A DNA stretch of 64,000 nt from the IMG/VR virus record IMGVR_UViG_3300032050_000080, positions 1 to 64,000 of that record. The stretch is one strand, 5' to 3'. The DNA is from a virus. Positions 12,590 to 63,507 of this stretch are shown here, one piece after another. The position numbers and the translations under genes were made by a program. The notes under the pieces were generated by a model that searched no databases, was not told the origin of the DNA, and saw only the letters and a list, made by a program, of their open reading frames with translations. Position 1 is the stretch's first letter. Every line of letters starts with the position of its first letter.

Positions 12590-12643
12590 AACCTACTTCC
12601 TTTCTTCGTCGATGCTCGTTGTTTAGTAGTAACCAATCAGAAG

Positions 12644-12724
12644 TAGTCAGGACAGGATTCGAACCTGTATCATAACGCTATAAGGAACTTAATCCACGAT
12701 GACTTCCCATTAGCCCACCTGACT
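12644..12724 (-). tRNA. tRNA-like gene B, possible Leu(UAA), poor anticodon stem
   Basis: Acceptor AGTCAGG/CCTGACT, D-arm GGCT..AGTC, T-arm ACAGG TTCGAAT CCTGT and A73 are sound. The 32 bases between D- and T-arm hold ATTAAG (TAA in the middle) and a hairpin ATA GCGT TAT suggesting a long variable arm, but the anticodon stem pairs badly. It may be a decaying or structurally unusual tRNA. A TATATTTG box lies upstream. Confidence 0.55.
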
Positions 12725-12815: not shown

Positions 12816-13370
12816 ATGAAAAAGATTAAGAGTTGGAAGTTATTCAACGAGTCAGTTGAAGAAAGTTTAGAGGATGTAAAATGGTTTTTAGTTGATTATG
12901 ATAATATAGTTCCTTATGATTATTATCCTAACTCAACTAATTTACTTGTGTATCGTATATCTGGTTATGGATTTTCAAAAGCTGATTTTGAAAGAATTGA
13001 AAGACTAGCTAATGAAGAAGATTGGAATGTTATAAATAAGAAAGAGTTTCTTATTTTCTATAAAGGGAGTAGAGAAGAAGCTGTTTTAAATTGGTTAGAT
13101 GAGAATTATAATAATCTTAAAATTAAAGTTATATCAAAAGGTGAAGACCACTACTATAAGGAAAATGAGTATGTAATTTCATTTACAGTTAATAAAACTT
13201 TTAATCCGAATTATGAATTACTTTATAACAATATATTTATGGAAAGTGATATATCTTATGTACCACATGTTTTTATAGATGATGCTAACTTATTAGACGA
13301 TATTTTAAAAAAGTGGTTAGAAAGGACTTATAATATTACTAAAATAACTAACATTTATTATGAGGATTAA
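12816..13370 (+). CDS. N-tagged protein, first of three tandem genes
   Basis: 184 residues, MKKIKSWKLFNESVEESLED. The tag is nearly identical to those of the next two genes although the bodies are only loosely similar. The body repeats an alpha/beta unit (SKADFERIERLANEEDW). The last codons overlap the next ATG (GAGGATTAA). Function unknown. Confidence 0.82.
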   Translation: MKKIKSWKLFNESVEESLEDVKWFLVDYDNIVPYDYYPNSTNLLVYRISGYGFSKADFERIERLANEEDWNVINKKEFLIFYKGSREEAVLNWLDENYNNLKIKVISKGEDHYYKENEYVISFTVNKTFNPNYELLYNNIFMESDISYVPHVFIDDANLLDDILKKWLERTYNITKITNIYYED

Positions 13371-42917: not shown

Positions 42918-42987
42918 TTCCAGTGATTTTTTTATTCTAGTTAGCTTATCGCCTCCAACTCTTTCATATAATTTATTTTATTTTTAG

Positions 42988-43061
42988 TGGAGAATACCGG
43001 AATCGAACCGGTCACCTCTTGTCTGCCAGACAAGCGCTCTAGCCAAATGAGCTAATTCCCC
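42988..43061 (-). tRNA. tRNA-Ala(GGC)
   Basis: Acceptor GGGGAAT/ATTCTCC, anticodon arm CTTGT CTGGCAG ACAAG (anticodon GGC), T-arm ACCGG TTCGATT CCGGT, A73. No CCA encoded; the trailer begins CTAAA. Last gene of the array controlled by leader 1. Confidence 0.95.
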
Positions 43062-43095
43062 AATTAAGTAGAGAAATTTAGATGAGTGTGTTTTT

Positions 43096-43182
43096 ACTAT
43101 GCTATCCATTACACCACCACCGCATTATTTTTATTTGAGCGGTGACCAGGACTCGAACCTGGATCAGTCGTTTGAAATACGA
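43096..43182 (-). tRNA. Circularly permuted tRNA-Glu(UUC)
   Basis: On the minus strand the 3' half comes first (43182-43138: TCGT ATTTCAA ACGAC, TGAT, T-arm CCAGG TTCGAGT CCTGG, TCACCGC T), then 14 bases, then the 5' half (43123-43096: GCGGTGG, TG, D-arm GTGTAATGGATAGCAT, A, G). Joined they make a 72-base tRNA with a 7-bp acceptor and a perfect anticodon stem GTCGT/ACGAC split between bases 27 and 28. Leader and trailer pair in three blocks: TTACT/AGTAA, GAGTG/CACTC, AAGTAG/CTACTT. Permuted tRNAs are known in red algae and some archaea. Confidence 0.82.
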
Positions 43183-43211
43183 AGTAACACTCGTTCTTTA
43201 CTACTACTTTG

Positions 43212-43283
43212 AGCGAGAAATGAGATTCGAACTCACGACACTCTGGTTGGTAACCAGATACTCTACCACTGAGCTATTCTCGC
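43212..43283 (-). tRNA. tRNA-Gly(ACC)
   Basis: Acceptor GCGAGAA/TTCTCGC, anticodon arm TCTGG TTACCAA CCAGA (anticodon ACC), U73, G1-C72 and C2-G71, all glycine identity features. A34 is unusual for Gly. Confidence 0.92.
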
Positions 43284-63236: not shown

Positions 63237-63323
63237 AGGAAGAAGTGGGAGTCGAACCCAGCCCGAGTTAACGAGCCCTTGTTTTCCAAACAAGTGAGAG
63301 GACCACCTCTTCTCGCATCTTCC
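63237..63323 (-). tRNA. tRNA-Ser(GGA)
   Basis: Acceptor GGAAGA/TCTTCC, D-arm GAGA..TCTC, anticodon arm CTTGT TTGGAAA ACAAG (GGA), long variable arm GGCTCGTTAACTCGGGC. U73 rather than the usual G73. Confidence 0.9.
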
Positions 63324-63420: not shown

Positions 63421-63507
63421 TGGCGGAAGAGTGAGGTATCGATCCCCATACCTTTCGGTACCACTAGTTTTCAAGACTAGGTCAAGCGCCAGCTTAATTA
63501 CTCTTCC
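63421..63507 (-). tRNA. tRNA-Ser(UGA) copy 1, CCA encoded
   Basis: Acceptor GGAAGAG/CTCTTCC, G73, CCA, anticodon arm CTAGT CTTGAAA ACTAG (TGA), variable arm TGGTACCGAAAGGTA, T-loop ATCGATA. Confidence 0.92.

What the first reader, a model, noticed from the sequence alone, without database searches (positions are those of the whole stretch)
43062..43211. Circularly permuted tRNA-Glu gene in a phage
The 3' half precedes the 5' half on the transcribed strand with a 14-base spacer joining the acceptor ends. Joined in order, they form a complete 72-base tRNA-Glu(UUC) with a perfect anticodon stem split between positions 27 and 28. Flanks pair in three blocks (TTACT/AGTAA, GAGTG/CACTC, AAGTAG/CTACTT), as expected for a precursor that brings the halves together. 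Permuted tRNAs are known from some algae and archaea; I know of none described in phages.
Basis: partly seen in the sequence, partly recalled or inferred. Interest (0 to 1): 0.93.

Follow-up and report, generated by a model that had tools for sequence, protein, structure and literature searches.

The report
Phage Y RNA mimicking a tRNA
The stretch that looks like a tRNA-Glu gene with its halves swapped is best read as a huge phage's copy of a bacterial "Y RNA", a known small RNA that imitates a permuted tRNA and is held by the Ro60 protein, so it is a new member of a known family and not a new way of making tRNA.

Summary
On the minus strand at 43063-43211 a complete tRNA-like body is encoded 3' half first, with a 14-nt spacer, a split at 27/28 and flanks that pair in three blocks. 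The whole is conserved with compensatory changes in relatives.

The interpretation as a spliced tRNA-Glu gene is not the best one. Permuted tRNA-like module plus basal stem is the architecture of bacterial Y RNAs (YrlA, Rfam RF02553), the partners of Ro60/Rsr. A covariance model trained only on RNAs from Ro60-encoding phage records, without the window's lineage, finds the window element at 108.9 bits (E 5.5e-29); the next window hit has 31 bits. All eight independent relatives first found with the permuted element encode Ro60. The flank stem, without the tRNA part, lies 311-447 nt upstream of Ro60 in 18 of 18 phage records examined. Relatives also carry ordinary tRNA-Glu or tRNA-Cys genes, and the permuted "Glu" has U73 where all 11 ordinary Glu genes have A73.

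Verdict: a phage Y RNA, new member of a known kind. Ro60 itself is not in the window's 77-kb record. Side result: unpermuted tRNA-like genes with a hairpin at 27/28 sit near Ro60 in crAss001-type phages.

The parts
43063..43211 (-). Whole Y RNA (YrlA-type) gene: basal stem, tRNA-like module in permuted order, basal stem
   Evidence: R2 match 108.9 bits, E 5.5e-29; structure pairs on A3; fold
43204..43209 (-). Outer basal stem, 5' strand AAGTAG (pairs with 43066-43071)
   Evidence: 2 of 6 pairs with compensatory change in A3; 6 of 6 in A4
43193..43203 (-). Conserved internal-loop strand TAGTAAAGAAC; inferred Ro60-binding region
   Evidence: AGTAGYRA-type motif shared with stem-only RNAs upstream of Ro60
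43183..43192 (-). Inner basal stem 5' strand GAGTG+TTACT
   Evidence: GAGTG/CACTC helix covaries; TTACT/AGTAA helix is invariant in the lineage but only 68% paired across the family
43138..43182 (-). tRNA-like 3' half (positions 28-73): anticodon arm with UUC at 43174-43176, T-arm, acceptor 3' strand, U73
   Evidence: sequence; ARAGORN on joined halves
43124..43137 (-). 14-nt A/T-rich spacer closing the acceptor stem; starts CAAA like the 3' end of ordinary tRNA genes of these phages
   Evidence: sequence; 119 of 178 ordinary tRNA genes followed by CAA
43097..43123 (-). tRNA-like 5' half (positions 1-27): acceptor 5' strand, D-arm, A26, G27
   Evidence: sequence
43084..43098 (-). Inner basal stem 3' strand AGTAA, bulge AAACA, CACTC (AGTAA includes positions 26-27)
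43072..43083 (-). Conserved internal-loop strand ATCTAAATTTCT (TTTCTC-type motif)
43066..43071 (-). Outer basal stem 3' strand CTACTT
43211..43283 (-). Ordinary tRNA-Gly gene immediately upstream (context)
   Evidence: same neighbour in LR745206.1
42987..43061 (-). Ordinary tRNA-Ala gene immediately downstream (context)
   Evidence: same neighbour in LR745206.1

Best explanation
The element is the gene of a phage-encoded Y RNA of the YrlA type. Its 5' and 3' ends pair into a basal stem with a conserved internal loop, which is the inferred docking site for the phage's Ro60/Rsr ring protein. The other end folds into a tRNA mimic in permuted order: the acceptor ends are joined by a spacer, and the stem leaves the tRNA body between positions 27 and 28. 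No splicing is needed, since the transcript as written is the functional RNA. Most likely it tethers Ro60 to something that recognises tRNA (PNPase, a tRNA-modifying or tRNA-cutting enzyme) or serves as a tRNA decoy during infection. Shown: permuted structure, its conservation, homology to RNAs in Ro60-encoding phages, and Ro60 in the relatives. Inferred: expression, Ro60 binding, the partner at the tRNA-like end, and the presence of Ro60 in the window's own phage.
For: R2, trained only on RNAs of Ro60-encoding records without the window lineage, scores the window element 108.9 bits, E 5.5e-29; next window hit 31 bits. Relatives of the same kind hit RF02553 YrlA directly: L012 E 2.2e-8 alone, L009 and L022, Xanthomonas phage Olaya 2.9e-8 and L069 1.9e-5; R1 and YrlA hit several of the same places. 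Ro60/TROVE occurs in 8 of 8 independent relatives with the element and in 3 further records of the pattern scan, against 0 of 22 others (Fisher p 6e-7 with the three window-strain records counted as negatives). The flank stem alone, with the same motifs, lies 311-447 nt upstream of Ro60 in 18 of 18 phage records. Permuted RNAs lie beside Ro60 in L069, L070, L009, L012, L022 and in cultured Xanthomonas, Arthrobacter, Gordonia and Brevundimonas phages. Basal helices covary across 20 RNAs (98% paired, every pair with double changes). Three 636-735 kb relatives without Ro60 have no such RNA (best 42 bits, partial).
Against: The window's own 77-kb record and two near-identical records (172 and 45 kb) contain no Ro60 gene; in LR745206.1 the two genes lie 128 kb apart, so fragments can miss it. 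The element itself does not match RF02553 even at E 10. The GNCGAAN0-1G Ro motif recalled for bacterial Y RNAs is not present verbatim. It retains a complete anticodon loop and an acceptor 3' end like real tRNA genes of these phages. No expression data.
Confidence: 0.9

Rival explanations
1. A true permuted tRNA-Glu gene: the flank helix brings the halves together, an endonuclease cuts at 27/28, a ligase joins them, and RNase P and a 3' nuclease trim the spacer, giving a mature tRNA.
For: Joined halves make a good tRNA-Glu. The spacer begins CAAA as ordinary tRNA 3' ends here do. A T4 Rnl1-type ligase is encoded in three relatives. No ordinary tRNA-Glu was called in the window's incomplete 77-kb record.
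Against: Ro60 association, and the same flank stem without tRNA halves beside Ro60. Helix TTACT/AGTAA nearest the supposed splice site is kept in only 68% of cells across the family, whereas the distant helices are kept in 98%. Relatives have 3-4 ordinary tRNA-Glu or a tRNA-Cys besides the permuted copy. U73 instead of A73. No archaeal-type splicing endonuclease or RtcB.
Confidence: 0.04
2. Dual RNA: a Y RNA whose acceptor ends are also processed by tRNA enzymes at the A/T-rich spacer, giving a two-piece Ro60-bound tRNA-like RNA with an open, perhaps chargeable, 3' end.
For: In this lineage and in L069a/L070a the acceptor is closed by a single-stranded A/T-rich spacer starting with C-A-A, like the 3' flank of 119 of 178 ordinary tRNA genes, and not by the tetraloops seen in L007, L009 and L012.
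Against: No direct evidence of cleavage; the isoacceptor signals are inconsistent (U73 with UUC anticodon).
Confidence: 0.08
3. Decaying remnant: two tandem tRNA genes recombined, leaving the 3' half of one before the 5' half of the next, without function.
For: It lies in a tRNA array; tandem tRNA pairs give weak hits to the same model (20-42 bits).
Against: Compensatory changes in flanks and body and conservation of place between tRNA-Gly and tRNA-Ala in LR745206.1 at 78.7% identity.
Confidence: 0.01

Closest known systems
YrlA / bacterial Y RNA (Rfam RF02553), partner of Rsr (Ro60)
   Same: Ends pair into a basal stem; the other end is a tRNA-like module with D, T and acceptor arms in permuted order and a closed acceptor stem; relatives lie beside Ro60 genes and hit RF02553
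   Different: The window copy scores below detection for RF02553, keeps a full anticodon arm, has a 14-nt A/T spacer in place of a tetraloop, and lies inside a tRNA array, far from Ro60 in its nearest relatives
Phage-encoded Ro60/Y RNA sets (jumbo phages with TROVE proteins, PMC7824862; phages said to carry YrlA, PMC7765460)
   Same: Phage carries both parts; 93 phage records in the collection encode a Ro60 relative
   Different: Huge-phage lineage (LR745206.1, 634,780 nt) with a stem-only RNA beside Ro60 and the tRNA-like one elsewhere
Permuted tRNA genes of algae and Thermofilum-type archaea (PMC3978253, PMC3218864)
   Same: 3' half encoded before 5' half; spacer between acceptor ends
   Different: Those depend on a bulge-helix-bulge motif and splicing endonuclease; here no such endonuclease was found and the flank stem is of the Ro60 type

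Membership tests
Bacterial Y RNA, YrlA type | tRNA-like module in permuted order with acceptor ends joined | tested here: met
Bacterial Y RNA, YrlA type | 5' and 3' ends pair in a conserved basal stem | tested here: met
   covariation in both flank helices
Bacterial Y RNA, YrlA type | Same stem as RNAs encoded beside Ro60 | tested here: met
   18 of 18 upstream regions; R2 hit 108.9 bits
Bacterial Y RNA, YrlA type | Match to Rfam RF02553 at its gathering score | tested here: not met
   no match for the window even at E 10; relatives match below the gathering score. No phage RNA tested reached it, Ro60-adjacent ones included, so the curated model does not cover this branch; the score is a detection threshold, not a biological definition
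Bacterial Y RNA, YrlA type | Recalled consensus GNCGAAN0-1G in the Ro site | tested here: inconclusive
   window has GTAGTAAAG, similar but not identical; the consensus is recalled, the paper is not held
Bacterial Y RNA, YrlA type | Ro60/Rsr encoded in the same genome | tested here: inconclusive
   absent from the window's partial record; present in 8 of 8 independent relatives
Bacterial Y RNA, YrlA type | Binds Ro60/Rsr | not testable with these tools
   needs an RNA-protein binding assay
Permuted tRNA gene (algal/archaeal type) | 3' half before 5' half | tested here: met
Permuted tRNA gene (algal/archaeal type) | Halves joined into a mature tRNA | not testable with these tools
   needs RNA-seq of infected cells
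Permuted tRNA gene (algal/archaeal type) | Splicing endonuclease available | tested here: not met
   PF01974 absent from six related records, controls ring in four archaea; the host is unknown
Permuted tRNA gene (algal/archaeal type) | Isoacceptor signals agree with the anticodon | tested here: not met
   U73 against A73 in all 11 distinct ordinary Glu genes of three relatives

The most novel reading that the evidence does not exclude
In these phages the Y RNA is still half a tRNA: its acceptor ends are processed like those of a tRNA at the A/T-rich spacer, so a Ro60-bound, two-piece, possibly charged tRNA exists. Together with the unpermuted tRNA-plus-hairpin forms near Ro60 this would show how YrlA arose, by circular permutation, from a tRNA carrying an inserted Ro60 arm.
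Probability: 0.1. Interest if true: 0.8.

Novelty: new member of a known kind. Interest (0 to 1): 0.4.

Why it matters
It removes a claim that would have been striking (the first permuted tRNA gene of a phage) and replaces it with a known RNA family in a new place. ARAGORN and the Rfam tRNA model do not call this permuted RNA, so others in phage tRNA arrays may be missed or misread. The lineage gives a test system for what phage Ro60 and its tRNA mimic do. The side finding of unpermuted forms near Ro60, including in the cultured phage crAss001, makes the origin of the permuted YrlA shape testable.

Tried and rejected
Group I or other self-splicing intron: flanks too short, and no intron family matched at this locus in Rfam. 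New short tRNA intron class: the pattern scan first suggested introns at 27/28, but those records carry Ro60 and the inserts look like its stem. tRNA-Leu-like genes with a conserved variable-arm insert (19 of the 34 pattern hits) share only GTGTTACTT, by chance or another cause: none of their records has Ro60. L076 from the 3'-flank pattern is a chance match. L017, L028 and L032 were judged chance matches. A search of bacterial genomes with a phage Ro60 found nothing, so R1 and R2 were not tested on bacterial rsr loci. Key papers on bacterial Y RNAs are not held; their content is from memory or from citing papers.

Full report
What is there. On the minus strand of the window, between a tRNA-Gly gene (43211-43283) and a tRNA-Ala gene (42987-43061), lies a tRNA-like body whose 3' half (43182-43138) precedes its 5' half (43123-43097), joined by the 14-nt spacer CAAATAAAAATAAT. 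Joined in tRNA order the halves give 72 nt that ARAGORN calls tRNA-Glu(ttc); as they stand, no program calls them.

It is conserved. The phage record LR745206.1 (634,780 nt) has the same arrangement between tRNA-Gly and tRNA-Ala, 78.7% identical over 297 nt, but with anticodon GCA. Two near-identical strains of the window (L002, L003) and further relatives came from pattern scans. In the window, LR745206.1, L024 and L025, all 36 pairs of the proposed structure are kept in all four sequences; 8 pairs change on both sides, 2 in the outer flank helix, 1 in the inner one, the rest in the acceptor and anticodon stems. So the flanks and the body form one structured RNA under selection.

What kind of RNA. 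Three relatives from the scan matched Rfam YrlA (RF02553, "Y RNA-like") below its gathering score: L012, L009 and L022. YrlA is a bacterial Y RNA: a stem formed by its two ends, and a tRNA-like domain (PMC8394870); it partners with Rsr, the bacterial Ro60. From memory, not held here: Chen et al. 2014 (RNA 20:1715) reported Y RNAs near Ro60 in more than 250 bacteria and phages and their tRNA-like domain, and a crystal structure of the YrlA tRNA-like module followed in 2018. A prediction follows: the relatives should encode Ro60.

They do. TROVE/Ro60 (PF05731) is present in 8 of 8 independent relatives carrying the permuted element; only the three records of the window's own strain, fragments of 77, 172 and 45 kb, lack it. 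Of 25 other records brought in by the same pattern, 3 have Ro60: those of L015, L027 and L034, the first two of which carry tRNA-like bodies with the same motif at 27/28. None of the 22 others, mostly with an unrelated tRNA-Leu-like insert, has it (Fisher p 6e-7). The LR745206.1 protein (483 aa) matches TROVE and, below the cut-off, the Ro60 vWA domain, and solved TROVE proteins, Rsr 2NVO and Ro60 1YVP. Ro60 relatives occur in 93 phage records of the annotated collection.

The flank stem is the Ro60 RNA's stem. A model (R1) built from the four permuted elements also found short RNAs matching only its stem. Reading 18 regions upstream of Ro60 in related phage records, R1's best hit in each lay on the Ro60 strand, 311 to 447 nt before the gene, with the same motifs: CAGTAGTRA, AAGTGTTACTTCG, AAAACACTCTT, CTCTGG (the weakest E is 0.012, and the records are close relatives, so these are not 18 independent cases). 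In LR745206.1 one such RNA lies at 240622-240698, Ro60 starts at 241087, and the permuted RNA is at 369031-369175. In L069 and L070 two permuted RNAs stand in tandem directly before Ro60. R1 also finds permuted RNAs beside Ro60 in cultured phages: Xanthomonas phage Olaya, Arthrobacter phage Atuin, Brevundimonas phage Papperlapapp and Gordonia phage Rabbitrun, and in the gut phage csAssE-Sib; Rfam YrlA hits overlap several of them.

Independent test. Model R2 was built only from RNAs of Ro60-encoding records, leaving out the window lineage. Caveats: two of its 20 rows are partial tRNA hits, and its alignment was fitted to R1's structure. It finds the window element at 108.9 bits, E 5.5e-29, and the three lineage relatives at 109-113 bits; ordinary tRNAs in the window reach 31 bits. 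In the 20-sequence alignment the outer and inner flank helices are 98% paired with every pair changed on both sides at least once; the TTACT/AGTAA helix next to the split is only 68% paired. Three large relatives without Ro60 (636-735 kb) have no comparable element: best 42 bits, from neighbouring ordinary tRNAs.

Why not a spliced tRNA. LR745206.1, with the permuted "Cys", has an ordinary tRNA-Cys; G008 and G009, with permuted "Glu", have three and four ordinary tRNA-Glu genes. All 11 distinct ordinary Glu genes of these three genomes have A73; the permuted ones have U73. RtcB and splicing endonuclease were not found in six related records; a T4 Rnl1-type ligase is present in three, which is expected for tRNA repair but leaves ligation possible. 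No ordinary tRNA-Glu was called in the window's 77-kb record, which is incomplete, so redundancy is shown in relatives only. Splicing is not excluded by sequence, but nothing requires it.

Likely working. Shown: structure, conservation, homology, Ro60 in relatives. Inferred: the stem with its internal loop docks on Ro60, and the tRNA-like end recruits or distracts a tRNA-binding partner. In Deinococcus Y RNA tethers Rsr to PNPase, and for Salmonella YrlA a role as competitive inhibitor of an anticodon nuclease has been suggested (PMC7790460). Which applies in these phages is unknown.

Features of its own. In this lineage the acceptor is closed by an A/T-rich spacer beginning CAAA; 170 of 178 ordinary tRNA genes of these phages have C after the discriminator and 119 continue CAA. 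Others of the family use short loops such as UUCG or GNRA. Whether tRNA enzymes cut the spacer is open.

Unpermuted forms. In crAss001 and its kin an unannotated 144-nt tRNA-like gene in normal order, with a 65-nt insert at about 27/28 ending GAGTTACTTC, lies some 0.2-0.8 kb after the TROVE gene. Its 9-bp arm is kept in three phages, with four varying pairs, one changed on both sides. L015 has a similar gene directly before Ro60, and the window's own record has a tRNA-Asn with a 54-55 nt insert outside the window at 64109-64236. These suggest how the permuted shape arose; this was only partly followed.

Verdict. New member of a known kind: a phage YrlA-type Y RNA. Confidence 0.9 for the identity, lower for the function.

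Noticed in passing
L178 (crAss001) 1501-1644; L163 4174-4317; L176 1501-1642; L177 1498-1639: Unannotated tRNA-like gene in normal order with a hairpin inserted near 27/28, close to the TROVE gene in crAss001-type phages; possibly an unpermuted Y RNA.
   Followed up: partly
G000:C1:64109-64236 minus strand (beyond the window end; L005 2110-2237): tRNA-Asn with a 54-55 nt insert at about 27/28 or 28/29, capped by GAAA and ending GAGTTACT before TCGG; may be another Ro60-arm RNA of the window's phage. Two ordinary tRNA-Asn genes lie nearby.
   Followed up: partly
L015 minus strand, match 12988-13030; L027 about 1575-1710: Unpermuted tRNA-like genes with an insert at about 27/28 in records that encode Ro60; in L015 directly before the Ro60 gene.
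   Followed up: partly
L006, L008, L010, L011, L014, L016, L018-L021, L023, L026, L029-L031, L033, L035-L037: tRNA-Leu-like genes with a conserved insert in the variable arm (AGTAATATGGGGTWGACCACCAGC...GTGTTACTT) and in some a hairpin in the D-loop; no Ro60 in these records. Nature unknown.
   Followed up: no
window 12643-12724 minus strand: tRNA-like gene that ARAGORN reads with a four-base anticodon (taag); similar calls (gtag, acat, attc) occur in related phages.
   Followed up: no
L001 1567-1690 (LR745206.1 365524-365647): 124-nt tRNA-like gene with a large insert that does not show the GTTACTTC motif.
   Followed up: no
window 63425-63507 and 63238-63323 minus strand: Hits to the selenocysteine tRNA model at or below its gathering score, next to a tRNA-Ser; probably long-variable-arm tRNAs.
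   Followed up: no
LR745206.1 470710-471315; G009 327110-327712; G008 330848-331450: T4 Rnl1-type RNA ligase gene in the three long records that carry the permuted RNA.
   Followed up: no
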